The notes under the pieces: model-generated
The model's input: only the letters and a program-made list of their open reading frames with translations
The model's database searches: none
Told to the model about the DNA's origin: nothing
Part shown: positions 3 through 18,642 of the stretch, in pieces
Layout: the number at the start of each line of letters is the position of its first letter
How positions within the stretch are numbered: the stretch's first letter is position 1
Program-made: the position numbers and the translations under genes
IMG/VR virus record: IMGVR_UViG_3300022752_000225
Coordinates: 1-33,740 of that record
Strand: one strand, 5' to 3'
Source of the DNA: a virus
Length of the DNA: 33,740 nucleotides

Positions 3-476
3 CGGATCAGAGCATCTGGTGGCACGACCTTGGCTTTGCGTGAGTTTTACATAGGCAACAACTCGCGTGAAATTCAGATGGCCAGGCTTAACCGCGACGA
101 CTATACCAACCTGCCCAACAAGAACTTTACAGCCAACCAGCCTTACCAGTTTTGGTTCAACAGGACCATACCAGAGCCAGAGATTTATCTTTGGCCTGTA
201 CCGAATGAGTACTATGTGCAGATGACTGTTTGGTACTCAAAGCAGATCATGGATGTTGGCGATCTGACAGATGAATTGCAGATCCCACAGCGCTGGTATT
301 TGGCTACAATTGGCATGCTAGCGCATCAGTTAAGCATGGAATTGCCTGCGGTTCCTCTTGATCGCATCAGGTATCTTGAGGATCAGGCCGGCAAGTATCT
401 TGCCCTAGCAGAGGCTGAGGAGCGTGATCGCAGTCCTATCTACTTTGCGCCCAACATAAGTGTGTACACGAAATAA
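3..476 (+). CDS. Adaptor-like head-tail protein, 5'-truncated
   Basis: The frame is open to the left edge, so the gene starts before the window; the first possible internal start is a TTG at 30, which is probably not the real start. The visible part has the pattern of phage head-tail adaptor or connector proteins: a short segment ending in RLNRDDYTNLPNKNF, then QFWFNR and IYLWPVPNEYY, then a C-terminal helical half. In related phages such proteins sit in a ring under the portal. The stop overlaps the start of the next gene (TAATG), so the two are translationally coupled. Frame 2 also reads a short peptide ending at 43, so an assembly frameshift near base 40 cannot be excluded. The family call is moderate because the N-terminus is missing. 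Confidence 0.6.
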   Translation, partial: RIRASGGTTLALREFYIGNNSREIQMARLNRDDYTNLPNKNFTANQPYQFWFNRTIPEPEIYLWPVPNEYYVQMTVWYSKQIMDVGDLTDELQIPQRWYLATIGMLAHQLSMELPAVPLDRIRYLEDQAGKYLALAEAEERDRSPIYFAPNISVYTK

Positions 477-817
477 TGCCAATGTTTCTTGACACTGAGG
501 GATATTCAGATATTGCGATTGCAATATGTGACCGATGCCGCATGAAACGTCCGCATGCAACCCTTGGGCCGGACATCAACTTTCCAGGCTTGATGGTGTG
601 CGAAGAAAACTGCAGAGATGAAAAAGATCCTTATCGCCTGCCCGCAAGACAGACTGAGCGTATCAACTTGCGGTTTCCGAGGCCTGATGTGTCTGTGGCT
701 GCAATACAGAACAACCTTGTAACAAACAATCAACAGAATGTCATTGTTTCAACTGAAGGCAATACCCAAACGCCAGAAAATAACGGGAACCTTGATGGCA
801 TAGCGGTGTCACCATAA
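476..817 (+). CDS. Small cysteine-pair (zinc-ribbon-like) phage protein
   Basis: This 113-residue protein has a CDRC pair near residue 18 and a CEENC pair near residue 42, spaced like a small zinc ribbon, followed by DPYRLPARQ and a low-complexity Asn/Thr-rich tail. I recognise the pattern as a conserved but unnamed protein that follows adaptor genes in aquatic podovirus-type phages. The ATG overlaps the stop of the adaptor-like gene, and its own stop overlaps the ATG of the collagen-like fibre gene (TAATG). The context suggests a virion assembly or head-completion role. No enzymatic motif is visible. Zinc binding is inferred only from the four cysteines. Confidence 0.6.
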   Translation: MPMFLDTEGYSDIAIAICDRCRMKRPHATLGPDINFPGLMVCEENCRDEKDPYRLPARQTERINLRFPRPDVSVAAIQNNLVTNNQQNVIVSTEGNTQTPENNGNLDGIAVSP

Positions 818-3039
818 TGGCTAATCAGACGATTACGCAATTACCGGCAGCAGGTGCTTTAACAGGCGCAGAGCTTGTTCCCATCGTCCAAGATGGCGGC
901 ACCGTACAGACAACGGTGGCTGCAATTGCGGCGAGTCCAGCGACAAACTACAGCTTTATCACGGCAACCAGTGAAGGCTTGCTTACGGATTCGAGGCAGC
1001 TTGCAACATCCGGATCGGGTTTAACACTCACAGACAACGGTCCTGGCTCAACAGTGGCTTTAGCCTTGTCAGGAGCGCCTGCAAGCCTCATCGCTTCGGG
1101 CAATGGCATACAGGTCAAGACAGGCGCGGGAACGCTTACAGCACGCTCTATTCAAGCGGGAACGGCAGGTTTAAGCGTATCTAATGGTGACGGTGTTGCA
1201 GGCAATCCAATCGTTTCGCTTTCCGGGCTGGTTCTTAATCTTGCTAACACTTCAGGTGTAGGTCTTTTATCGCGCACAAGCGGTGGAGGCATCGGTGTCG
1301 TCACGCTGCAGGGAACTGCAGATGAGATTGACGTTACAAATGGAACGGGCGATGGTGTAAACCCGACGGTAGGGCTAGCAGACAATCCAGTTGTGCCAGG
1401 CACGGGTTCGCTGACTTTGCCTAAGGGCAACGTAATGCAAAGGTCATCGCCTGTTAACGGCATGATTCGGTACAACACTCAAAGTGATCAGTTTGAGGGT
1501 GTCATCAATGGCGCTTGGGGATCGCTTGGCATTTCAGGTTACTCTGGATTCTCAGGATCGGGCGTATCAGGATTTTCTGGATTTTCAGGATCGGGTATTT
1601 CTGGATATTCTGGGTTTGGTCTATCTGGATTTTCAGGAGAGTCAGGGTTTTCAGGGTTTTCGGGTATTTCAGGTTTTTCCGGCGTGTCAGGATATTCAGG
1701 TGACAATCCTGGATCAAGTGGATTTTCAGGAATCAGCGGGTTTTCAGGCTTCTCAGGGTCAGGCATTTCGGGTTACTCAGGGTCTGGCATATCGGGCTAT
1801 TCGGGACTTGGTGTATCGGGATACTCAGGACTATCGGGCTTTTCTGGAATCAGCGGATTTTCGGGAAACAGTGGGTTTAGTGGAATATCCGGATTCAGTG
1901 GTATCTCAGGATTTTCAGGGTCTGGGGTTTCGGGATTCTCAGGATTTTCTGGCGCAGGAACATCGGGTTTTTCTGGCTTTAGTGGTATTTCTGGCTTTTC
2001 AGGGATCTCAGGTTTTTCAGGGATTTCAGGCTTTTCAGGACTTTCGGGATTTAGCGGTATCTCTGGGTACTCAGGAAGCGGTATATCAGGGTTTTCTGGT
2101 GCAGGAACTTCGGGCTTTTCAGGATTTAGCGGCCAATCAGGGTTTTCTGGCATCTCAGGTTTTTCAGGAATTTCAGGGTTTTCGGGGGCAGGTTCTGCAA
2201 TTACGGTATCGGATGAGGGAACGCCTCTTACTACCAACGTACAGTCATTTGATTTTGTGGGTGCTGGCGTTGTTGCAACAGCAATCGGCAACGCGGTTAC
2301 GGTTACGATTTCAGGGGGCGGTGGCGGAGGTAGTTCAGGATTTAGTGGGTACTCAGGATTCAGTGGAATTTCAGGCTTTAGCGGAATCTCGGGATTCAGC
2401 GGTATTTCTGGGTTTAGTGGAATCTCAGGGTTTAGTGGCATTTCAGGTTTTAGTGGTATTTCAGGATTTAGTGGTTCATCAGGCTTTAGCGGAACATCGG
2501 GCTTTAGTGGAGCATCAGGTTTTAACGGTCAATCAGGCTTTTCTGGCTTGGGAACCTCTGGATTTTCGGGGTTCAGTGGCCTGTCGGGGTTTTCAGGAGA
2601 TAGTGGCTTATCAGGATTTAGTGGTGGATCAGGGTTTTCTGGAGTTAGTGGCTACTCAGGCGTTAGCGGGTACTCAGGGGCAGGAACATCGGGTTTCAGT
2701 GGAGTGTCTGGCTTTAGTGGAATTTCAGGATTCAGCGGTTATTCAGGAACAAGTGGATACTCAGGAGCAGCCGTTTTAGGTTTGTCTGGGTTTTCAGGGC
2801 AAAGCGGTTATTCAGGAACGAGCGGGTTTTCAGGCATCAGCGGATTTTCTGGTATTAGCGGATTTTCTGGGGCATCAGCGCCGACAAATGTCACAACAAC
2901 GGCTAGTGCAACAGCCGGCTTCATTTTATTTGCAACGAACTCAACAACCGGAAGCCAGGCTGTTTTGGTTGATGCAGGTTTGTCGGTTAACGGCAGCACC
3001 AATGCAATCACAGGCGGCGTGGACGGCGGGACCTTCTGA
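817..3039 (+). CDS. Tail fibre with collagen-like G-x-S repeats
   Basis: The 740-residue protein begins with a non-repetitive part (about 1-236) rich in Thr/Gly/Ala beta-type sequence, as in fibre shafts. Residues about 237-455 and 508-686 are Gly-x-Ser triplets ([12 protein letters not shown]), a collagen-like pattern in which Ser holds the third position and F, Y, I or V the second. Between the two repeat blocks lies a small domain (about 456-505) containing VSDEGTPL and a VTVTI strand, common in aquatic phage fibres. The C-terminal 54 residues are unique and end in GGTF. The most likely role is a trimeric fibre for host recognition. The stop overlaps the start of a glycosyltransferase gene (TGATG), which suggests that fibre and modifying enzyme are co-translated. 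Confidence 0.8.
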   Translation: MANQTITQLPAAGALTGAELVPIVQDGGTVQTTVAAIAASPATNYSFITATSEGLLTDSRQLATSGSGLTLTDNGPGSTVALALSGAPASLIASGNGIQVKTGAGTLTARSIQAGTAGLSVSNGDGVAGNPIVSLSGLVLNLANTSGVGLLSRTSGGGIGVVTLQGTADEIDVTNGTGDGVNPTVGLADNPVVPGTGSLTLPKGNVMQRSSPVNGMIRYNTQSDQFEGVINGAWGSLGISGYSGFSGSGVSGFSGFSGSGISGYSGFGLSGFSGESGFSGFSGISGFSGVSGYSGDNPGSSGFSGISGFSGFSGSGISGYSGSGISGYSGLGVSGYSGLSGFSGISGFSGNSGFSGISGFSGISGFSGSGVSGFSGFSGAGTSGFSGFSGISGFSGISGFSGISGFSGLSGFSGISGYSGSGISGFSGAGTSGFSGFSGQSGFSGISGFSGISGFSGAGSAITVSDEGTPLTTNVQSFDFVGAGVVATAIGNAVTVTISGGGGGGSSGFSGYSGFSGISGFSGISGFSGISGFSGISGFSGISGFSGISGFSGSSGFSGTSGFSGASGFNGQSGFSGLGTSGFSGFSGLSGFSGDSGLSGFSGGSGFSGVSGYSGVSGYSGAGTSGFSGVSGFSGISGFSGYSGTSGYSGAAVLGLSGFSGQSGYSGTSGFSGISGFSGISGFSGASAPTNVTTTASATAGFILFATNSTTGSQAVLVDAGLSVNGSTNAITGGVDGGTF
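1528..2182 (+). repeat. Collagen-like coding repeat block 1
   Basis: Six- and nine-base coding units for Gly-x-Ser triplets. The protein repeat is near-perfect, but Ser is written with TCA, TCT, TCG, TCC, AGT and AGC, so the DNA repeat is much less perfect. Several other frames stay open through this block only because of the repeat. Confidence 0.85.
2332..2878 (+). repeat. Collagen-like coding repeat block 2
   Basis: Second block of Gly-x-Ser coding units, after the VSDEGTPL domain. AGT/AGC Ser codons are more frequent here than in block 1. It ends just before the C-terminal domain of the fibre. Confidence 0.85.
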
Positions 3040-4328
3040 TGAAATATAGCATCGTGATTCCAAGCTATAACCACTGCGATGATTTATTAAAACCATGTCT
3101 TGAGTCGATTTTCAAGTACACCGATATGGCTGACGTTGACCTAGTCATATCGGCAAACGGTTGCAAAGACAACACAAAGGAATACCTAGAAGAGTTAGCA
3201 ACAGACTTTGCAAAGATTGGCTTTGAAAAGCACCTTAGGGTCGTGTGGAATGATCAGCCGCTAGGTTATTCAGGGGCGTGTAATGCAGGCATCATAGCCA
3301 CGCGCACTGATCGAATTGTTTTGCTGAACAACGATACAGTGCTCTTGCCGCAGTTTAAGAATCAATGGCTAGAGATGCTGGATCAACCATTCAATGATCA
3401 TGAAAAGTGTGGCATCTCATGTGTCATCAAGGGACCATCAGAGCCTGCTGGGCGCGATTTTGCAGTGTTCTTTTGCGTAATGATCAAGCGCAGCGTTTTT
3501 CATCGCATAGGCCTTCTTAACACGGAATACGGCGTTGGTGGCGGCGAGGACACTGAGTTTTGCATTCTTGCGGAAAGAGCGGGTTTTGAGGTTCTTGAAT
3601 GCTCGCCCAAAACATGGAATGGTAATCAATTTACAGGCGTGTTTCCGATCTATCACAAGGGCGAGGGTACGGTTCTTGACACCTCGCTTGTGCCGGATTA
3701 CCACGACGTGTTTTTGCGTAATTCACTCAAGCTTGCCAAGAAGTTTAATCCGGACTGGTATCGCTGGCGCTTGTCCAATCATTGGGAGCGTGCAGTTTTC
3801 TTAAAGGGCGATCCGGTATTTCCAAGGGAAACGACGCGTTATCAGTGGGCAGCTCGCCACATCAAGGGTAATCGTGTGTTTGAGCTTGGCTGCTCAAGCG
3901 GGTACGGCGTTCAGTTTATGCCTGAAGATGTGGAGTACATGGGTCTTGATTACGATCCCATTATTGTTGAAGTTGCTAAAGAACAGAACTGGAGTCCAAA
4001 GGCGCAGTTTGTGCATGCCGACATTAATACTTATGAGTTAGGTAATTACGACACCATCATTGCCTTTGAAGTCATTGAGCACCTTGATAACGGCTTAGAG
4101 ATTCTGCAAAAGCTTAAACAGCATTGCAAGGTGTTGCTTTTTACGGTTCCTATGAATGAGCCTGTAGGATTTTGGGGGCCGCATCATAAGCTTCATGGAT
4201 TAAATGAATCGCACTTTCCAGGTTTTGATTTCAACTACATTGATGAGCACGGCAACATTACGCTAGCTCCCAAACCAATTAGTGAGCAAAATAGGCTTAA
4301 CCTTTTGATTGGAGGTTGGCATGCCTAG
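3039..4328 (+). CDS. Glycosyltransferase family 2 - methyltransferase fusion
   Basis: The N-terminal half is a GT-A glycosyltransferase of the GT2 type. It starts with YSIVIPSYN, has NNDT at 97-100 as the nucleotide-sugar/metal motif, and an acidic GGGEDTEF segment at 167-174. The C-terminal part is a class I S-adenosylmethionine methyltransferase with motif I at 281-290 (FELGCSSGYG), an acidic residue after motif II at D304 and FEVIEHL at 343-349. One chain could therefore add a sugar and methylate it or a neighbouring group. The start overlaps the fibre stop by one base, and the gene ends 8 bp inside the next glycosyltransferase gene. The coupling to a Ser-rich fibre suggests that the fibre is the acceptor, although host-surface modification is also possible. 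Confidence 0.85.
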   Translation: MKYSIVIPSYNHCDDLLKPCLESIFKYTDMADVDLVISANGCKDNTKEYLEELATDFAKIGFEKHLRVVWNDQPLGYSGACNAGIIATRTDRIVLLNNDTVLLPQFKNQWLEMLDQPFNDHEKCGISCVIKGPSEPAGRDFAVFFCVMIKRSVFHRIGLLNTEYGVGGGEDTEFCILAERAGFEVLECSPKTWNGNQFTGVFPIYHKGEGTVLDTSLVPDYHDVFLRNSLKLAKKFNPDWYRWRLSNHWERAVFLKGDPVFPRETTRYQWAARHIKGNRVFELGCSSGYGVQFMPEDVEYMGLDYDPIIVEVAKEQNWSPKAQFVHADINTYELGNYDTIIAFEVIEHLDNGLEILQKLKQHCKVLLFTVPMNEPVGFWGPHHKLHGLNESHFPGFDFNYIDEHGNITLAPKPISEQNRLNLLIGGWHA

Positions 4329-5289
4329 TGTTCTTTGCTCCATTTCAACACGAGGCAGAACGCATACAACGCTGCCTTTGGCTTTGCAAGCGGTGATGAG
4401 CCAAACGCGCACACCAGACAAAATTGTGATTTTTGATGATAACGATGTGCATCAAGATCTGCGTCACGATCCAATATACAAAAACTTGTTTTGGATGATA
4501 AGTTCCAAAGGAATTGCCTGGGAGTGGCTTTGGGCCGCAAAAAAAGGTCAGCATCACAATCATCAGATGGCCAATTGGATGGGATATGAATGGGTCTGGC
4601 GCGTTGATGATGATGCGCTTCCAGAGCCGAATGTTTTGCAGACCTTGCTTGAGCATATTGGCCCTGATGTTGGAGGTGTTGGCGGCTCTATTCTTATGCC
4701 TTCGGTTGATGTTGAAGGCGCAGTGAGTTCAGGAAAGATTGATGCAATTGACTGTGAACCTCATCCACAATGGCAGCGCATCAAGAAGAAGCAGCAAGTT
4801 GAGCACCTGCATTGTAGTTTTCTATATCGCGCAGGGATTTATGATTACAACTTAGGTTTATCAAGAGTCGCTCATCGCGAAGAAACGCTATTCAGTTATG
4901 GCTTGTATCGCAAGGGATACAAACTCGTGATTGTGCCGGATGCAATTACCTGGCACTGGAAAGCACAATCAGGAGGCATTCGATCCGAAACGAGTACAGA
5001 TCTTTATGCACATGACGAGAACATTTTCCGCAATACCATGTCCTTTAAAGATCATACGGTTGTGGTGCTCAATAACGGGATGGGCGATCATTTAGTGTTT
5101 ACGCATGTTTTGCCTGAAATCAAAAACCCTGTCATTTTTGGTTGCTATCCTGAGATTGTTCCTTGTCGTTCGATTGCAGAAGCACAAACGCTTTTTGGTG
5201 ACATTGAGATGTTTAACATTTACGCCAAGATGGATCGATGGAAATGGCAGAGCAGCCTTGAGGGTGCATTCAGGAGGCTTTACCTGTGA
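4321..5289 (+). CDS. GT2-type glycosyltransferase with a GT9-like N-terminal half at its C-terminus
   Basis: I chose the ATG at 4321, which follows GGAGG at 4312-4316. Residues 1 to about 235 form a GT-A glycosyltransferase with IFDDND near 37-42 and VDDD at 95-98 as the DxD motif. From about 245 a second fold begins: VVVLNNGMGDHLVF with GMGDHLV at 253-259, resembling the glycine loop at the start of GT9 heptosyltransferases. The chain stops after only about 80 residues of that fold, and the next gene carries what looks like the remainder. The stop overlaps the next GTG start. The acceptor and donor sugars are unknown. Confidence 0.75.
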   Translation: MPSVLCSISTRGRTHTTLPLALQAVMSQTRTPDKIVIFDDNDVHQDLRHDPIYKNLFWMISSKGIAWEWLWAAKKGQHHNHQMANWMGYEWVWRVDDDALPEPNVLQTLLEHIGPDVGGVGGSILMPSVDVEGAVSSGKIDAIDCEPHPQWQRIKKKQQVEHLHCSFLYRAGIYDYNLGLSRVAHREETLFSYGLYRKGYKLVIVPDAITWHWKAQSGGIRSETSTDLYAHDENIFRNTMSFKDHTVVVLNNGMGDHLVFTHVLPEIKNPVIFGCYPEIVPCRSIAEAQTLFGDIEMFNIYAKMDRWKWQSSLEGAFRRLYL

Positions 5290-5744
5290 TCATCATCGCA
5301 CCTTATGCCAAGACTTTGTTAAGCGGCAGCAGAAATCCCAAGAACTATCCGTTCTGGCCGGAATTGTTAGCCATGATTGACGAGCATGTCGTTCAAGTTG
5401 GCGTATCAGGCGAGGAGCCTTTGGTAGCAGACTTTCGCAAGAACTTGCCGATCTTGGAGTTGCGCGGCTTGTTGAAGCAGTGCTCAACCTGGATCTCATG
5501 CGATAGCTTTTTCCAACACTTGGGCTGGGACGAGGGCAAGCAAGGGATTGTGTTGTGGTCGGTATCTGATCCCAACATCTATGGCCATCCTGAGAACATC
5601 AATCTGCTCAAGGATCGGTCTTATTTGGCTTCTAACCAATTTTTATGGTGGGAGAAATATCCTCATAACCCTGATGCGTTTGTGCGCCCAGAAGTGGTTT
5701 TTGAGGCGTTACAAGGGCTATTGTCGCTTGATCGCGCAGCCTAA
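5286..5744 (+). CDS. GT9 heptosyltransferase-like C-terminal half
   Basis: This 152-residue protein starts at a GTG that overlaps the previous stop (GTGA). It matches the C-terminal Rossmann half of GT9 (heptosyltransferase-type) GT-B enzymes: NYPFWPELL, then VVQVGVSGEE, then LRGLLKQCSTWISCDSFFQHLGW, then SDPNIYG. In GT9 proteins this half binds the ADP-sugar. It lacks the N-terminal half, which instead appears to be fused to the end of the upstream gene. The two polypeptides would need to pair for activity. Separation of the two halves is visible directly; the assembly is inferred. Confidence 0.7.
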   Translation: MIIIAPYAKTLLSGSRNPKNYPFWPELLAMIDEHVVQVGVSGEEPLVADFRKNLPILELRGLLKQCSTWISCDSFFQHLGWDEGKQGIVLWSVSDPNIYGHPENINLLKDRSYLASNQFLWWEKYPHNPDAFVRPEVVFEALQGLLSLDRAA

Positions 5745-5779
5745 AAAATGATGAAATTAAATGATTGACGGAGTTTGAT

Positions 5780-7186
5780 ATGCCAGCAACCAATTACACA
5801 CCCATTCAGCTTTATCGCACGAATACGGCATCAACAACTGCACCAAGCGGAGCTAATTTGAACGCTGGTGAATTAGCTATCAATTACAACGATAGCGGCA
5901 TGATTCTTTATGCCAAAAATACATCGGGTACAGTTATCAAACTGATGAATAACCCTGCAAGCTTGTTGTATCCCACGGCAGACGGATCAGCAGGGCAAGC
6001 CATTGTCACCAATGGCTCGGGAACTTTAAGTTTTGCTACAGCAGGCTTAGCATGGCAATCCGTCCAAACCACAGGCTTCACCGCAGTCGCAGGCAGAGCT
6101 TATCCCTGCAACACTACGAGCGCAGCTTTCACCGTCACGCTGCCAGCAACGCCAAGCGCAGGGGATTTAGTGACGTTGGTTGATTACGCTGCAACGTGGG
6201 ATACCAACAATCTGACCGTCAATCCGAATGGCAACAAGTTAAATGGAGCAGTATCAAACGGAACTTTGTATGCTGAAAGAGGGTCGGTCAATTTAGTTTA
6301 TGTTGATTCGACTCAGGGCTGGATTTCTTACGCATCAAATGGAACTACAAATATTGCTCAAGCACCACCGACTGTTGAATATCTTGTTGTTGCTGGCGGT
6401 GGTGGGGGTGGTTTTCGCTTTGGTGGAGGTGGAGGTGCTGGTGGGTTTAGAACAGCAACAGGACTAGCGGTTACGGCAGGAACGTCAATAACAGTGACTG
6501 TTGGATCTGGTGGGGCTGGAGCGGCAAACAACAACGTGCCTGGGTCAAAAGGTGGAGACTCTGTTTTTAGTACGATCACATCAACAGGTGGTGGCGGTGG
6601 TAGGAGCAGTTCAGATTCAAAAACAAGCACAAATGATGGTGGTTCTGGTGGCGGAGGAAACAGTAGCGCAAGCTCAGCGGGGTCTGGTAACACGCCGAAT
6701 ACAGCACCATCGCAAGGGAATAATGGCGGTGATGGTAATAGATTAAACGGAAGTTGTTATGGCGGTGGTGGAGGTGGTGGTGCAAATGGCGCTGGCACAA
6801 ATGGGCCAAGTTCTACTGGAGGAAATGGTGGCGGCGGTACAGCATCATCTATTTCAGGGCCATCTGTAACCTATGCAGGAGGTGGCGGCGGGGCGGCTGA
6901 GAACACTGCCGGATCGGGGGGAACAGGCGGTTCTGGTGGTGGTGGAAACGGTGGGAATGGAGGATCTCCAAGTTCAAGTACAGCTGGAGGTACTAATTTA
7001 GGTGGGGGTGGCGGCGCAGACTCAACTCCAAGCGGAACGGCAAGAGCTGGCGGCTCCGGCATTGTCATTATTCGCTATGCCGACACCTTTGCAGCGGCAG
7101 TATCAACGACGGGTTCACCAACCATTACGGTAGCCGGTGGTTATCGTGTTTATAGCTGGACTGGCAACGGTTCCATCACATTCTGA
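5780..7186 (+). CDS. Tail fibre/adhesin with glycine-rich domain
   Basis: I chose the ATG at 5780, which has GGAG about 7 nt upstream; an in-frame TTG at 5765 lies before that ribosome site. The 468-residue product opens with a motif common in phage fibres (YTPIQLYRTNTAS, NAGELAINYND) and a beta-rich middle. From about residue 198 (VEYLVVAGGG) to the end it is a glycine-rich domain with many GGGG runs. Such domains fold as polyglycine sandwiches in T-even gp38-type adhesins and form variable receptor-binding surfaces. It is the second distinct fibre in the window and lies between the glycosyltransferase cassette and the 2OG oxygenase gene. It probably makes the tip or a side fibre. Confidence 0.75.
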   Translation: MPATNYTPIQLYRTNTASTTAPSGANLNAGELAINYNDSGMILYAKNTSGTVIKLMNNPASLLYPTADGSAGQAIVTNGSGTLSFATAGLAWQSVQTTGFTAVAGRAYPCNTTSAAFTVTLPATPSAGDLVTLVDYAATWDTNNLTVNPNGNKLNGAVSNGTLYAERGSVNLVYVDSTQGWISYASNGTTNIAQAPPTVEYLVVAGGGGGGFRFGGGGGAGGFRTATGLAVTAGTSITVTVGSGGAGAANNNVPGSKGGDSVFSTITSTGGGGGRSSSDSKTSTNDGGSGGGGNSSASSAGSGNTPNTAPSQGNNGGDGNRLNGSCYGGGGGGGANGAGTNGPSSTGGNGGGGTASSISGPSVTYAGGGGGAAENTAGSGGTGGSGGGGNGGNGGSPSSSTAGGTNLGGGGGADSTPSGTARAGGSGIVIIRYADTFAAAVSTTGSPTITVAGGYRVYSWTGNGSITF

Positions 7187-7187
7187 T

Positions 7188-7790
7188 ATGAACTTGCATA
7201 ACTTATTTCCAACACCCGTGGGGTTCTTTGACCTCGGACGAGTATTAACGGATGAAGAAAAGTTCTTCCTGATGGAGTTGGAGCAGCGTCCCAATACGGG
7301 AAACCGCACAAGCACCGATAACTTTGTGCTCAGAAACGCCACGCTGACAACGCTTAGATCGTGGATGGAAGATTGCGTGGATCAGTATTTCAAAGCCACG
7401 GTCAATCCAAAACACAATGTCAGTTTAAGAGTGACGCAATCGTGGGTGAACTATTCCAAGCCGGGGCAGTATCACCACAAGCACGCTCATCCTAATTCGT
7501 ATGTCTCTGGCGTGTTTTATATCCAGACGTCCGATAAAGACAGGCTTTACTTTTACAAAGACGGTTGGCAACAGATCAAATTCCCGCCACAAGATTGGAA
7601 CACCTACAACTCTGAATCGTGGTGGTTTGAAGCAACGCAGGGAAGATTGATTCTGTTTCCATCATCTTTAACGCACATGGTTCCTACGGTTGAAGGCGAC
7701 GATGTGCGGGTATCACTAAGTTTTAACACCTTTCCTGTCGGCGTAGTCGGCGAGGAAATGGACTTAACCGGATTAAAGTTGGAGGTTTAA
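7188..7790 (+). CDS. 2OG-Fe(II) oxygenase family protein
   Basis: I chose the ATG at 7188, immediately after the fibre stop. The 200-residue product opens with LFPTPVGFFDL, as in the phage and cyanophage 2-oxoglutarate/Fe(II) oxygenase family. It has a His-rich metal segment HHKHAHPNSYVSGVFYI (96-112), a distal FPSSLTHMVP with H163, and VRVSLSFN with R174 as the likely 2-oxoglutarate contact. Family members hydroxylate proteins or small molecules, but phage substrates are mostly unknown. The location directly after fibre genes suggests modification of a virion protein. It abuts the next gene with no spacer. Confidence 0.75.
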   Translation: MNLHNLFPTPVGFFDLGRVLTDEEKFFLMELEQRPNTGNRTSTDNFVLRNATLTTLRSWMEDCVDQYFKATVNPKHNVSLRVTQSWVNYSKPGQYHHKHAHPNSYVSGVFYIQTSDKDRLYFYKDGWQQIKFPPQDWNTYNSESWWFEATQGRLILFPSSLTHMVPTVEGDDVRVSLSFNTFPVGVVGEEMDLTGLKLEV

Positions 7791-8180
7791 ATGGCGCACT
7801 TTGCAAAGCTAGATAAGAACAACGTGGTGCTAGAAGTTCACGTTGTTCATAACAACGAGCTGCTTGACCAAAACGGCGAAGAGCAAGAGTGGAAAGGGGC
7901 GTGGTTCCTGCAAAACTGGTCGGGTGGTTATCCGTACTGGAAGCAGACCAGCTACAACGGCAACTTCCGCAAAAATTACGCAGGCATCGGCTACACGTTT
8001 GACCCTGACCGTGACGCTTTCATCCCGCCTAAGCCTTATCCCAGTTGGGTGCTGAATGAGCAGACATGTCTCTGGGATGCTCCCGTAGCCATGCCTACAG
8101 ACGGGAAGCGGTATCAGTGGGATGAGGCAACGGTAAATTGGGTTGAGTTAGAACCTTTGCAAAGGAACGAAAATGGCTGA
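7791..8180 (+). CDS. Conserved phage protein following fibre genes
   Basis: This 129-residue protein begins MAHFAKLDKNNVVLEVHVV and contains WKQTSYNGNFRKNYAGIGY, then AFIPPKPYPSW and a Trp-rich C-terminus. I recognise it as a widespread family in cyanophages and other aquatic phages, usually next to tail fibre or oxygenase genes, with no established function. It has no signal peptide, membrane segment or catalytic motif I can name. The ATG directly follows the previous stop and a GGAGG-type site. It may be a virion decoration or fibre-associated protein. Confidence 0.75.
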   Translation: MAHFAKLDKNNVVLEVHVVHNNELLDQNGEEQEWKGAWFLQNWSGGYPYWKQTSYNGNFRKNYAGIGYTFDPDRDAFIPPKPYPSWVLNEQTCLWDAPVAMPTDGKRYQWDEATVNWVELEPLQRNENG

Positions 8181-9891: not shown

Positions 9892-10112
9892 AAGAGCCGC
9901 AGCAAAGCCTCAAGGAGTGGACCGCACAGAACTGGCGCACAAAATCAGGTAAGCGATCATCAGATACGGGCGAAAGATACCTACCTGAAGCAAAGATCAA
10001 GATGCTGACGCCACAAGAGTACGCAGCAACAACACGAGCCAAGCGCGAAGGAAAAAGGCAGGGAAAACAGTTTGTGCCCCAGCCTGAGTCGATTAGAAAG
10101 AAGGTGTGGTGA
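9888..10112 (+). CDS. Small basic phage protein (74 aa)
   Basis: The ATG overlaps the previous stop. The 74-residue product contains LKEWTAQNWRTKSGKRSSD, then TGERYLPEAKIKML and EYAATTRAKREGKRQGK. I recognise this pattern from many phage genomes, where it sits beside the other small basic proteins seen here; its function is not known. It has high Lys/Arg content and no hydrophobic segment. The stop overlaps the adaptor start (TGATG). Confidence 0.7.
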   Translation: MKEPQQSLKEWTAQNWRTKSGKRSSDTGERYLPEAKIKMLTPQEYAATTRAKREGKRQGKQFVPQPESIRKKVW

Positions 10113-10744
10113 TGCCAGCTTATGCAATGACCTACAACAACCTGGTAACAGACATCCAGCAGTATCTGGAGCGCACTGACACGGCCACGGTTGATCGTAT
10201 TCCTACGTTTATTGGTTTAGCCGAACAGGTCATTGCAAGCCAGATCAAGTTTTTGGGTAACTTGACAGTCCAATCAAGTGCCATGATTGCAAGCAATCCT
10301 GTGATTGATAAACCGGCTCGCTGGCACAAAACAGTTTCGATGAATGTCACGGTTGCCGGCAAGCGTTATCCTGTTCTACTACGAAAGTATGAGTACCTAA
10401 GAGAGTACTGGCCCGATCCCACACAAACAGGGGTTCCCAAGTTTTACTGTGATTACGATTACACGCACTGGTTTGTAGCGCCAACACCGACGATTGCGTA
10501 CAACTTCGAGGTGCTGTACTACGAAAGAGTCGCACCATTAAGCACAGAGAACCAAACGAACTGGTTTACGGTTTACGCGCCACAGGCTTTACTTTACGGC
10601 TCACTCTTGCAAGCCATGCCGTTTCTGAAGAACGATGAGCGCACGCCGGTATGGCAGGCGCAGTACGATGCAATTATGCAAACCCTAATGGCTGAGGATA
10701 AGCTGCGTATCGCTGATCGCCAGGCCATCGCTGCGGATAGTTAA
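10112..10744 (+). CDS. SU10-type head-tail adaptor protein
   Basis: I chose the ATG at 10112, which overlaps the preceding TGA; upstream in-frame GTG codons at 10106 and 10109 are less likely. The 210-residue protein matches the phage SU10 adaptor family: an N-terminal helix MTYNNLVTDIQQYLERTD, IPTFIGLAEQVI, then a beta part with ARWHKTVSMNV and GVPKFYCDYDY, and a C-terminal helical bundle ending in ADRQAIAADS. In SU10-like phages this protein forms the ring joining portal and nozzle. Together with the fibre-like and nozzle-like genes that follow it forms the tail-building group. Confidence 0.85.
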   Translation: MPAYAMTYNNLVTDIQQYLERTDTATVDRIPTFIGLAEQVIASQIKFLGNLTVQSSAMIASNPVIDKPARWHKTVSMNVTVAGKRYPVLLRKYEYLREYWPDPTQTGVPKFYCDYDYTHWFVAPTPTIAYNFEVLYYERVAPLSTENQTNWFTVYAPQALLYGSLLQAMPFLKNDERTPVWQAQYDAIMQTLMAEDKLRIADRQAIAADS

Positions 10745-14525: not shown

Positions 14526-14773
14526 GCGTAGCGTTAATTTACGATCCGCGGTTTCATACCTTTGATTCGTGGGCATCGCTCATGTGTGAGTTGTTTGCTG
14601 CAAATCAGTTGCAAATACCAATTCTTGATCTTGATTGGAAGTCTTGGGCTGCTGGATTAATTGCTATTGATGTCTTTGCCAATGAGGCAACGCCTGATCC
14701 CTATGCTTTTGATGATTGGCAGGATTGGGCGTCTGCTTTAGTTGGGGCTTTTAACGCGAGCACAAACGCATGA
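14522..14773 (+). CDS. Small tail-region protein of unknown function
   Basis: A GTG start overlaps the previous stop. The 83-residue product is acidic and Trp-rich, with [28 protein letters not shown] and [12 protein letters not shown]. The spacing of the three aromatic W-A pairs suggests a compact helical protein. I have the impression that it is a conserved neighbour of nozzle genes in related uncultured phages, but I know no function. It ends with an ATGA overlap onto the large gene after it. Confidence 0.65.
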
Positions 14774-17700
14774 GTACATCTGCTGCTTATCAATATGCAA
14801 CAGGTCAGGGCACCGAAGAGGCGATGAATGAAAACATTCGCAACTTTTTGGCCACTCAACCAACCGAAGAAGCGACGCGAGCAGCGATGGCTCAGTATGG
14901 CGTCTCGGAAGAAGATGTTCGTCGTGCCACAGGCAAGTCATTTGCGGATTACTTTCCAGCGCAACCCTTTGCTTTAGCTTTAGATATAGCTTCGCAGACC
15001 CCTGTTTATACGACAAATCAAGCGCAGATTGAAACTGCGTCACCGCTGTCTGCCGCATATCAATATGCCACAGGAAAAGGTGGCATCGGCTTAGAGGCAA
15101 TGAATCAAAATATTCGTAATGCCTTAGCCACAGCACCGAGTCAAGAAGCCACACAGGCGGCAATGACCCAGTATGGAATATCTGATGAAGATATTGTTAG
15201 GGCAACAGGCAAATCATTTGAAGATTTGTTTCCAGCAATTTCTCCGTTAGGAGGCGTATCAACGGTTAGCGGAGCCGCAGCAAACGATATGGTATCAGGC
15301 GGCGCTTTGCCAGTCAGTCGAGATGAGGCGCAACAAACGGCTATAGATGCGGCAACCGTAAAGCCTGCGGAAGCGGTGGGAACTTACCGCGGTGTTCCGA
15401 TACCAACATTTACAGATAAATACATAGACCGCGGTGATGAAGGCACACAGATTCTTTCAGCAGCCGATCAACTTGCAAGCTGGAAACAAAACCAAGATTA
15501 TCTTGCGTCTTTAACGCCAGCGCAAAGAGCAATTGAAGCCGCAAAAACTGCGTTTTCATTTGAGGGTGGCATACAGACGGGGTACGACCCAGTTACATTA
15601 GGCGGCAAGGAATGGACCGTTGCCGGTGATGGCAAAACGCTTGTACGTTTGTCGGACGATCAGTCTGGATTGGCTGCAAAACAGACTCGTTATGATGTCC
15701 TGGATGCGGCTACAGGTCAGGTCGCGCAACAAGTTGGCGTAGAGGGTCCTGGCTTATTAAAAAGCTTTTTAACTAATCCAGTTACCGGATTGATCCTTAG
15801 TTTGGCGCTTCCTGGTGTAGGTACGGCTATAGGACAAACTTTAGGCATTACGAACACCGCCTTAGCTCAAGCTGTAGGTTCAAACATAGCAAAGTTTGGA
15901 CTGCAGATTGCTGGTGGCAAAAGACCAATTGATGCATTGAAAAACGTGGTGGTATCGGATTTGATGCAAGGTGTTACCTCAACCGTAAGTTCAATGCTGC
16001 CTACAGAACTGTCATCGGTTGGAAAGCAAGTTGTTAACCAATTAGTTACAACAGGCAAGATTGATCCGGCCTCATTAGCAACGACTGCTGGGATGGACTT
16101 TGCGGCTGGCCAGTTAGCAAATGAAACGGGCATGAAAAAGTCTGATGCATTGACGGTCATCAATGCAGGCCTAAAGACAATTCAAGGCGATCCGATGGGC
16201 GCTGCAACCATGTTGTTTGGCTCTGCAGTCAAAGCCGGATCTAAAGAAGCGCAGGCACAGCAAGTTTATGTCAATGCCAAAAATAGTGGCGCAAGTGATG
16301 CAGAGGCTTATGCTGCTGCAGAAGCTTTTTATGGACGCGACGTAATTGATCCTCGGATCTCTGGCCAAGGTGTTGGCGGAAGCGAGTTTGAAGACTATGG
16401 TGGCAGGGATGAGTTCAGAGGTGGTCTGCAAAACGTATTAGACACGCTAACTGGCGCATTAGGTAACGACACCGTATCTGGTGATGGCGCAGGACCAGAC
16501 ACTGTGTCATCAATGAACAGCTTATTCAACAGTAAAGAACCGGCCAGCTTTACTGATGCGGTTCAATTATTTAGAGATAATGGTTATTCAATAGGACAAA
16601 TCCACGACTGGATTGTTACTAATGGCATTTTTGATTCGGAGCAAGCAACAAACATTTTAACCAACATGTTTGGAGCGCCTTCAAATGAAGTCGTACCAGA
16701 AAAACAGGGTGTTGAAGGCGGCAAAGGCACTGACATCACGGCAACCACTCCAGCAGCACAGGACACGCTGAAAACACTTGGCGGCATCTTAGGGCTTGGC
16801 ACTGAAGATCCTGATGCGGCCTATCAAGCTCTATTCGGTGGCGCAGAAGGCGGTCTTGGCGGGAAGGCGGTGCTTGGCTTTGATCAGTTAAGCGGCCTGC
16901 GTGACGAGATTGAAATCATCCTTGATGACCCGGAGTTGCCTGAAGATGCACGCCGCGAAATTACCAAAATGTATGCCGAAGTTTCGCGCCAAGCAGACGC
17001 TGCACAAACCGCTGCATCGACTTCATTCCAAGACGACATCACTGCTGTAGCACAATTAGCTGCCGCGCAAGCCGCTGCTTCTGGTCAGCTTGGTGGCGGC
17101 CAACCCAGTGGGAGCACTCCAGGAGGAGGAACTTTCGGTGAGGATGGGGGTGGCACGCTTGGGGGAGGAACTCCTAGTGGTGGAACTCCTAGTGGTGGGA
17201 CTCCTAGTGGTGGGACGCCTGGTGGCGGAACTCCCGGAGGTGGCACCGCAGGAGGAGGCGGAGAAGCTGGCGTCCCAACAATTGGTGGAACCGCCACAGA
17301 AAAAATTGTGCTTGGTCCAGGCACGGGAATGTTAGGTTCTTCTTTAGGAAATTTGGCTGGACAAAATCTTCCTGCAACCCCGATTACTAAGGGCGGTCCT
17401 GGTGGTGAAACCCCAGGTGGAGGAACTCCTGGTGGTAAAGCCCCTATAAGTGAAACGTCTAGCGATGGTAAATCGGGCGTCTCGGGTATTTCGGGTGTTT
17501 CCGGCAGATCTGGTGAATCTGGAGTTTCAGGTACATCAGGTGTTTCTGGAACTTCTGGAATTTCTGGAACATCGGGAATATCGGGCGTCTCTGGAACATC
17601 CGGAAAGTCTGGAGTATCTGGAATTTCTGGTATTTCTGGAACCTCCGGCGTTTCAGGAGTATCGGGTGTTTCTGGAACTTCTGGCAAGTCTGGAGTATCT

Positions 17701-18642
17701 GGAGTATCTGGAGTATCTGGAGTATCCGGAGTATCTGGAGTATCCGGAACGTCTGGAGTCTCAGGTACTTCTGGAATTTCTGGTTACTCTGGTATGTCTG
17801 GTACTTCTGGAATTTCTGGCTATTCAGGTATTTCTGGAAAATCGGGAACATCTGGTACTTCTGGAGTTTCTGGAACGTCAGGTATTTCGGGCTTTTCTGG
17901 ATCTGGTTTATCAGGTTATTCAGGGTCTGGTTTATCAGGTTATTCAGGTTCAGGATTGTCTGGCTATTCTGGATCGGGTGTCTCTGGCTACTCTGGAACC
18001 GGAACTAAACTGCCAATATCATTAGGCGGTGGTCCATCAACGCCTGCAGGGCCGATATCAGGGCCAGAAATAGGGCGTTTGTATGGAAAAATGCTTGAAG
18101 CAAAAGTATTGCAAGAAAGGCTAATTGATCCGCTAGCGGAACTGAAACGAAGGATTAAAGAGATGGATTCAATTGAGCCAGAACTTGCCTCAGTGATGGC
18201 GCAGCGTCTAGGCCTACCACAGCCTCCACAAGAGCCTTCATACACCTATGGCAAGGAAACATCCATTGATGAAGTTTTGGGAACAGGTAGCCGTGAATAC
18301 GCTCAGGGAGGCTATGTAGAGCCGTTGAGAGCTACAGCGATGAATCCGCAGTTTATGTACCGAGCCGGAGGACTAGGCCGCGAGGACTTTAAACATGGCA
18401 AACACGTTGCCGGCGAGGGTGACGGTCAGTCCGATGACATTCCTGCGTGGCTTGCTGATTCTGAATTTGTATTGCCAGCGGATGTTGTAGCAGCATTAGG
18501 AAATGGCTCAACTAAGGCTGGAACTGATAAGCTTTACGAGATGATGTATGCAATACGGCGGCGAGCAAGATCCACTGGACCCAAAGAATTGCCGCCTCCA
18601 GCATTAAAATCTCCTCTTGATTACGTCAAAAAGGGTAAGTAA
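14770..18642 (+). CDS. Large virion protein, likely ejection or tail protein, with collagen-like region
   Basis: The 1290-residue protein is modular. Two copies of a 60-residue repeat open it (about 4-63 and 94-157; SAAYQYATG, then QYGxSxED and RATGKSFxDxFP). A Gly/hydrophobic stretch near 325-370 could insert in membranes. An Ala-rich helical middle follows, then a [10 protein letters not shown]-type linker (about 774-834), then collagen-like G-x-S triplets (about 900-1077). The C-terminus carries the phage virion motif [19 protein letters not shown] with [15 protein letters not shown], seen at the ends of large structural proteins in many phages. Its place before three more large virion genes suggests an internal or ejected protein. 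No lytic active site was recognised. Confidence 0.7.
17470..18002 (+). repeat. Collagen-like coding repeat in the large virion protein
   Basis: Gly-x-Ser triplet coding repeats with V, T, I or Y in the second position ([10 protein letters not shown] type). Ser codons are mixed as in the fibre gene. The last part returns to the SGYSGSG form of the fibre, which suggests shared ancestry of the two repeat tracts. Confidence 0.85.

What the first reader, a model, noticed from the sequence alone, without database searches (positions are those of the whole stretch)
817..7790. Possible fibre-modification cassette: Ser-rich collagen-like fibre, glycosyltransferases, methyltransferase and 2OG oxygenase
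The fibre gene is coupled by TGATG to a glycosyltransferase-methyltransferase gene, which is coupled to two more glycosyltransferase genes. A glycine-rich fibre and a 2OG oxygenase follow. Nearly every third residue of the collagen-like tracts is Ser, an acceptor for O-glycosylation, and collagen-type proteins elsewhere are hydroxylated and glycosylated. The repeats have no Pro or Lys, so a classical hydroxylase role is unlikely, and the oxygenase target may be another protein.
Basis: inference. Interest (0 to 1): 0.6.

Follow-up and report, generated by a model that had tools for sequence, protein, structure and literature searches.

The report
Phage sugar-enzyme cassette for collagen-like fibres
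A small set of sugar-transferring enzymes, so far found only in phages, travels with an unusual serine-studded, proline-free collagen-like tail fibre across many freshwater phages, which suggests that these phages coat their fibres with sugars made by their own enzymes.

Summary
The fibre (817-3039) has 119 Gly-X-Y triplets, 89% with Ser at Y and no Pro or Lys. Three overlapping genes follow: GT2-methyltransferase (3039-4328), a second GT2 with a C-terminal extension (4321-5289), and a separate heptosyltransferase-like (GT9) C-lobe (5286-5744).

Across IMG/VR, every distinct relative of the second enzyme with at least 6 kb upstream has a Gly-X-Ser collagen there (35/35). Phages sharing this fibre's N-terminus split perfectly: collagen tract with enzymes 15/15, neither 36/36. 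Pro-type phage collagens have the enzymes in 0/84. An isolated phage, P19250A, has the same arrangement. A second protein in the window (14770-18642) has another Gly-X-Ser tract, which largely tracks the enzymes too.

The 2OG oxygenase and glycine-rich fibre do not belong to the core.

Most likely the enzymes O-glycosylate, then methylate, Ser of these tracts. The acceptor, sugar and benefit are inferred; no biochemistry was possible. Gly-X-Ser collagens without this enzyme family also exist (17 long-record loci), so the link is strong in one direction only.

The parts
817..3039 (+). Collagen-like tail fibre, 740 aa: conserved N-terminal domain (aa 1-234), Gly-X-Ser tracts, short non-repetitive C-terminus
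   Evidence: N-terminal domain shared with non-collagen fibres
1528..2884 (+). Gly-X-Ser region (interrupted at about 2200-2330); proposed acceptor of O-glycans
   Evidence: 119 triplets, 106 Ser at Y, no Pro/Lys, both Ser codon families
3039..4328 (+). GT2 (GT-A) glycosyltransferase fused to a class I SAM methyltransferase, 429 aa
   Evidence: Pfam; the two halves are separate or absent in relatives
4321..5289 (+). Second GT2 glycosyltransferase with invariant DDD (96-98) and an ~80-aa C-terminal extension carrying an invariant G-x-G-D-H motif (proposed partial GT9 N-lobe); core gene of the cassette
   Evidence: AlphaFold2 pLDDT 89.9, GT-A fold; invariants
5286..5744 (+). GT9 (heptosyltransferase)-like nucleotide-sugar-binding C-lobe as a free-standing protein, 152 aa
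   Evidence: AlphaFold2 pLDDT 94.4; VIA-align Z 16.2 WaaF, 15.5 TibC, 14.9 WaaC; hhalign vs WaaC/F/Q/U E 1.3e-5; separate ORF in 30/30 relatives
14770..18642 (+). 1290-aa protein, probably virion-associated, with a second Gly-X-Ser tract (aa ~900-1077, nt ~17467-18000); probable second substrate
   Evidence: the tract is absent from homologues in enzyme-negative phages
5780..7186 (+). Glycine-rich fibre-like protein; neighbour, not core
   Evidence: Pfam PF21722; homologues occur in enzyme-negative phages
7188..7790 (+). 2OG-Fe(II) oxygenase (2OG-FeII_Oxy_5, phrog_81); neighbour, not core
   Evidence: present with and without the cassette
7791..8180 (+). phrog_7759 protein of unknown function; often next to the 2OG gene

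Best explanation
This is a phage virion-protein glycosylation cassette whose substrate is the Gly-X-Ser collagen-like tract. Soluble, cytosolic enzymes act on newly made fibre. One or more glycosyltransferases (the core GT2 at 4321-5289 together with its GT9-like part, completed in trans by the 5286-5744 C-lobe) put a sugar on the Ser at position Y. The GT2 of the fused protein, where present, extends the glycan and its methyltransferase domain caps it. The tract at 14770-18642 is modified in trans. In collagens without Pro or hydroxyproline, sugars at Y plausibly stabilise the fibre or mask it. Shown: gene content, folds, and the tight phylogenetic association of the core enzymes with Gly-X-Ser tracts. 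Inferred: that Ser is the acceptor, the order of enzymes, the sugar, and the benefit.
For: (1) Enzyme to tract: 35/35 distinct loci with >=6 kb upstream; all 18 enzyme-bearing records of >=20 kb carry exact (Gly-X-[Ser/Thr])6 DNA matches. (2) Same fibre N-terminus, different C-terminal part: tract+enzyme+ 15/15, tract-enzyme- 36/36, Fisher p 3e-13; 6 vs 17 clusters at 90% identity. Three independent switches on starred branches, both traits changing together each time. (3) Tract to enzyme: 70 of 87 informative Gly-X-Ser loci, against 0 of 84 Pro-type phage collagens. (4) The link is not only adjacency: the tract lies 4 bases to 6.7 kb upstream, or downstream, of the core gene, and relatives at about 31-44% identity in large phages also have it in the same record. 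(5) A second, distant protein gains or lacks its tract largely with the enzymes. (6) Y is Ser in 91% of 14,331 triplets beside the enzymes, while X varies. (7) The isolated phage P19250A has a 1201-aa Gly-X-Ser protein 15 bp before MT-GT2-GT9C homologues. (8) No membrane-spanning stretch in the enzymes: maximum 19-residue hydropathy 1.39 or less.
Against: No direct evidence of modified Ser. 17 Gly-X-Ser loci in records of 20 kb or more lack this enzyme family, three of those records having other GT2s. The evolutionary switches on the fibre tree are only three (sign test p 0.25). Where the genes are adjacent, tract and enzymes could be co-transferred without a functional link. One enzyme-positive relative (L107) lacks the second protein's tract.
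Confidence: 0.7

Rival explanations
1. The enzymes modify the host surface (LPS or O-antigen) to block superinfection, and they go with this fibre because both concern the same receptor.
For: This is the usual reading of phage glycosyltransferases near tail fibres in aquatic phages (PMC7029224); the fused GT2 has weak matches to GtrB-like O-antigen conversion (phrog_841, 0.0014); GT9 relatives include LPS heptosyltransferases.
Against: The association is with the repetitive tract, not with a receptor-binding tip: tract-bearing proteins have many unrelated ends and a second, non-fibre protein also carries it. No transmembrane segments, no flippase or polyprenyl-phosphate enzyme seen beside them.
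Confidence: 0.15
2. Hitch-hiking: the tract-bearing fibre part and the enzyme genes form one recombination unit and have no biochemical relation.
For: In this subgroup the enzymes start within 3 bases of the fibre stop, and only three switches are seen on the fibre tree.
Against: The pairing persists when the genes are kilobases apart, in different order, in unrelated phage backgrounds and at about 31-44% enzyme identity, and the unlinked second tract largely follows it.
Confidence: 0.1
3. The fibre is the substrate, but the acceptor is not Ser: Tyr at X, or residues outside the repeats.
For: Tyr is common at X in some tracts (27% in P19250A).
Against: Tyr at X is only 2-10% in several cassette-bearing fibres whose Y positions are 96-100% Ser (window, L187, L283), so Tyr is not needed.
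Confidence: 0.08
4. The glycosyltransferases hypermodify phage DNA.
For: Some virus glycosyltransferases do this (cited in PMC12619734).
Against: It does not explain the tie to Gly-X-Ser proteins.
Confidence: 0.02

Closest known systems
Virion glycosylation in mycobacteriophages (Freeman et al. 2023, as cited in PMC12619734)
   Same: Phage-encoded glycosyltransferases modify structural proteins of the virion
   Different: Glycans there are at the C-termini of capsid and tail-tube subunits; here the proposed substrate is a long collagen-like repeat, and the enzyme set differs (not compared by sequence here)
BAHT / TibC-AAH autotransporter heptosyltransferases (eLife 2014, PMC4358343)
   Same: GT9-type C-lobe (Z 15.5 to TibC); TibC modifies Ser but not Thr of repetitive surface proteins
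   Different: No four-Cys iron finger in the C-lobe; lobes split over two genes and joined to a GT2; substrate not a beta-helix
Glycosylated collagens: BclA of Bacillus spores (PMC8968730) and Riftia cuticle collagen with galactosyl-Thr (PMC10141479)
   Same: O-glycans on Gly-X-Y repeats; in Riftia they replace hydroxyproline for stability
   Different: Acceptor there Thr (Riftia; for BclA from memory), usually with Pro at X (from memory); here Ser with Phe, Tyr or Ile at X, on a phage fibre
Mimivirus collagen with its own hydroxylation and glycosylation (mentioned in PMC8968730)
   Same: A virus encodes both the collagen and the enzymes that modify it
   Different: Lys hydroxylation and glucosylation (from memory); here no Lys in the window's fibre tract and no linked oxygenase
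Collagen-like tail fibres of E. coli prophages, EPcl proteins (PMC3368898)
   Same: Collagen domain inside a phage tail fibre
   Different: Recombinant EPclA is unglycosylated; no linked enzymes described

Membership tests
GT2 glycosyltransferases (GT-A fold) | GT-A fold and Pfam PF00535 above cut-off with acidic metal motif | tested here: met
   3039-4328: 61.9 bits; 4321-5289: 24.2 bits against 23.3; invariant DDD 96-98; GT-A structures Z about 16-18
GT9 heptosyltransferases | GT9-type C-lobe | tested here: met
   Z 16.2 to WaaF, rmsd 2.1 over 134 residues, the GT9 rows above the next unrelated row at 11.8; hhalign E 1.3e-5
GT9 heptosyltransferases | Pfam PF01075 above curated cut-off | tested here: not met
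   10.8 bits in the window, up to 21.6 in relatives; cut-off 22
GT9 heptosyltransferases | N-lobe with GD motif | tested here: inconclusive
   Invariant G-x-G-D-H and predicted beta-alpha-beta at 246-274, but profile match only P 0.05
GT9 heptosyltransferases | Both lobes in one chain | tested here: not met
   C-lobe is a separate ORF in 30/30 relatives checked
BAHT (TibC-like) | Iron finger of four conserved Cys in the C-lobe | tested here: not met
   No invariant Cys; one nearly invariant (C66) in alignment A3; defined in PMC4358343
BAHT (TibC-like) | Dodecameric ring; transfer of heptose to Ser | not testable with these tools
   -
Collagen-like proteins | Long uninterrupted Gly-X-Y repeats | tested here: met
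   Pfam Collagen 3.5e-38; 119 triplets
Collagen-like proteins | Pro-rich X/Y and triple helix | tested here: not met
   No Pro in the tract; the triple helix itself could not be tested
Phage virion-protein glycosylation systems | Glycan demonstrated on a structural protein | not testable with these tools
   needs virions and mass spectrometry

The most novel reading that the evidence does not exclude
Phages have a collagen that does without proline: O-glycans on nearly every Y-position Ser, made by a virus-only enzyme set with a GT-B enzyme split between two proteins and tethered to a GT-A enzyme, take over the stabilising role of hydroxyproline along the whole fibre.
Probability: 0.3. Interest if true: 0.8.

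Novelty: new variant of a known kind. Interest (0 to 1): 0.62.

Why it matters
Phage glycosyltransferases near tail fibres are usually assigned to LPS or DNA modification. This gives a large, comparative case that one family modifies a fibre, names the probable acceptor motif, and points to a cultured phage (P19250A) in which it can be tested at once. If true, it shows how a Pro-free collagen could be built and offers enzymes that glycosylate collagen-like repeats in bacteria.

Tried and rejected
Classical collagen hydroxylation: rejected, no Pro or Lys in the tract, and the 2OG gene is not tied to the cassette (cut-off passed in 9/28 vs 3/23). L084 looked like an enzyme locus without a tract, but its contig ends inside the GT2 gene. 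L018 (5.8 kb upstream, 0.8 kb downstream) is the one locus at >=5 kb without an upstream tract; its kin L020 has the tract further upstream. Cellular origin of the core GT: 85,000 species genomes gave four hits, all MAG contigs, probably viral. Pfam, and hhalign of the whole GT2, did not show a GT9 N-lobe. Foldseek similarity of the core GT2 to polypeptide GalNAc-transferases and ColGalT1 is not used as evidence: all GT-A folds score alike. Lower Thr content at Y beside the enzymes (p 0.001) is a hint only, because lineages are not independent. L099 (tract in the second protein, no enzyme in its 22-kb record) lacks the upstream region and is uninformative. No paper found describes the association; the library holds open-access papers only.

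Full report
WHAT IS THERE. The window is a 33.7-kb phage record from IMG/VR. The fibre gene 817-3039 overlaps the next start (TGATG). The GT2-methyltransferase gene overlaps the second GT2 gene by eight bases, and that gene overlaps the last by four (GTGA). The fibre tract holds 119 Gly-X-Y triplets with no Pro and no Lys. 106 of the Y positions are Ser, 74 by TCN and 32 by AGY codons; the two codon families cannot interconvert by one silent step, which fits selection for Ser, although repeat expansion has shuffled the units. A second Gly-X-Ser tract lies in the 1290-aa protein at 14770-18642.

THE ENZYMES. The first protein is GT2 plus methyltransferase. The second is a GT2 with GT-A fold (AlphaFold2 pLDDT 89.9; Z about 18) and an 80-residue tail with an invariant G-x-G-D-H motif. 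The third, without any Pfam match at E <= 0.1, folds confidently (pLDDT 94.4) as the C-lobe of a GT9 heptosyltransferase: Z 16.2 to WaaF, 15.5 to TibC, 14.9 to WaaC, against 11.8 for the next unrelated row. Profile comparison with E. coli WaaC/F/Q/U gives E 1.3e-5. It is a separate ORF in all 30 relatives examined. The tail of the second protein is plausibly the missing N-lobe, reduced in size, but the profile evidence is weak (P 0.05). In one large phage the methyltransferase is fused to the second GT2 in a 905-aa protein, with the C-lobe still apart. None of the enzymes has a membrane-spanning stretch.

ENZYMES IMPLY TRACT. Searching viral contigs with the second GT2 gave 80 loci. In the pooled set of 100 distinct proteins, all 35 with at least 6 kb of upstream sequence have a Gly-X-Ser collagen there, and 42 of 43 with at least 5 kb. 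Searched whole, all 18 records of 20 kb or more match the (Gly-X-[Ser/Thr])6 DNA pattern. The distance from tract to gene ranges from 4 bases to 6.7 kb, and some tracts lie downstream. The GT9 C-lobe accompanies the GT2 in 98 of 100 (the other two are cut by contig ends), the methyltransferase in 81, the first GT2 in 55. Several loci have the tract directly before the second GT2 with no detectable methyltransferase, so the minimal unit is tract, second GT2 and C-lobe.

CONTROLS. Loci fetched by the fibre's N-terminal domain alone, blind to tract and enzymes, split without exception: 15 with both, 36 with neither, none mixed (Fisher p 3e-13; 6 and 17 clusters at 90% identity). The tree of that domain needs three changes, and tract and enzymes change together each time; three is too few for the sign test. 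Loci fetched by Pro-type collagen repeats have the enzymes in 0 of 84. Loci fetched by the Gly-X-Ser repeat have them in 70 of 87 informative cases; 17 in records of 20 kb or more do not. So the enzymes need the tract more strictly than the tract needs these enzymes. Whole enzyme-negative records of related phages have no Gly-X-Ser match; the single hit is a Gly-Thr-Thr repeat. Homologues of the 14770-18642 protein carry the tract in enzyme-positive phages (L094, L105, L112, L117, L119) and lack it in the enzyme-negative ones examined (for instance L101, L132, L137, L158, L159); L107 is the exception. This protein lies about 9 kb from the enzymes, so adjacency alone does not explain it.

AN ISOLATED PHAGE. 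Methylophilaceae phage P19250A (KX815270) has a 1201-aa protein full of S-G-Y-S-G-F repeats, annotated as tape measure, 15 bp before a stand-alone methyltransferase (59%), the GT2 (62%) and the C-lobe (63%). It lacks the first GT2 at this place.

WHAT DOES NOT BELONG. 2OG-FeII_Oxy_5 passes its cut-off in 9 of 28 enzyme-positive and 3 of 23 enzyme-negative records. The glycine-rich gene also has homologues in enzyme-negative phages.

MECHANISM. Inference from the above: the enzymes act in the cytosol on the fibre and put a sugar on Ser at Y; further sugars and a methyl group follow where the extra enzymes exist. Ser is the best acceptor candidate because it is the one constant residue besides Gly (91% of 14,331 triplets beside the enzymes), whereas Tyr at X can fall to 2%. 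TibC, a GT9 relative by fold, modifies Ser and not Thr (PMC4358343). Galactosyl-Thr is reported to stabilise a worm collagen (PMC10141479), which suggests, but does not show, what glycans would do for a collagen without Pro. Sugar identity, enzyme order and benefit are open.

FAMILY AND NOVELTY. The second GT2 family was found in phage contigs and four MAG contigs only. The third protein works like a GT9 C-lobe, but Pfam's cut-off and the one-chain architecture are not met, so it is not filed as a GT9 member; nor is it a BAHT, lacking the iron finger. As a whole it is a new variant of phage virion glycosylation. No held paper describes it.

Noticed in passing
L002 5306-8911 (KX815270 21390-24995): P19250A_0023 is annotated as tail tape-measure protein but is a Gly-X-Ser collagen-like protein of 1201 aa.
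   Followed up: yes
window 3-476 and 10106-10744: Two SU10-adaptor-like genes in one phage, one on each side of the fibre and lysis region (the first open at the window edge).
   Followed up: no
L479-L482 (genome contigs): Four species-genome contigs (MAGs named Nitrosotalea, Mucilaginibacter, Opitutae, actinobacterium) carry the phage GT2, probably viral contigs binned into MAGs.
   Followed up: partly
L101/L335 and L022/L117 (IMGVR_UViG_3300047121_000347, 101,830 bases): One viral contig holds two versions of the adaptor-fibre region, one with and one without the cassette; possibly two phages joined in assembly.
   Followed up: no
L216 1365-3476; record G087 37609-37943: Thr-type repeats (Gly-Phe/Tyr-Thr, 98% Thr; Gly-Thr-Thr) in phages without the core GT2; a natural contrast to the Ser-type tracts.
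   Followed up: partly
L166 211-5592; L484 5204-7918 and 7909-9774: Large phages with giant multi-domain glycosyltransferase/methyltransferase fusions related to this cassette (1794 aa and 905 aa), next to further GT2/GT4-type enzymes.
   Followed up: partly
L230, L231, L269, L224, L277: Groups with two or three very large Gly-X-Ser/Thr proteins in tandem; no core GT2 and no PF00535 hit in the records of L224, L230, L231 and L269 (L277's 10.9-kb record checked for the core GT2 only). What, if anything, modifies them is unknown.
   Followed up: no
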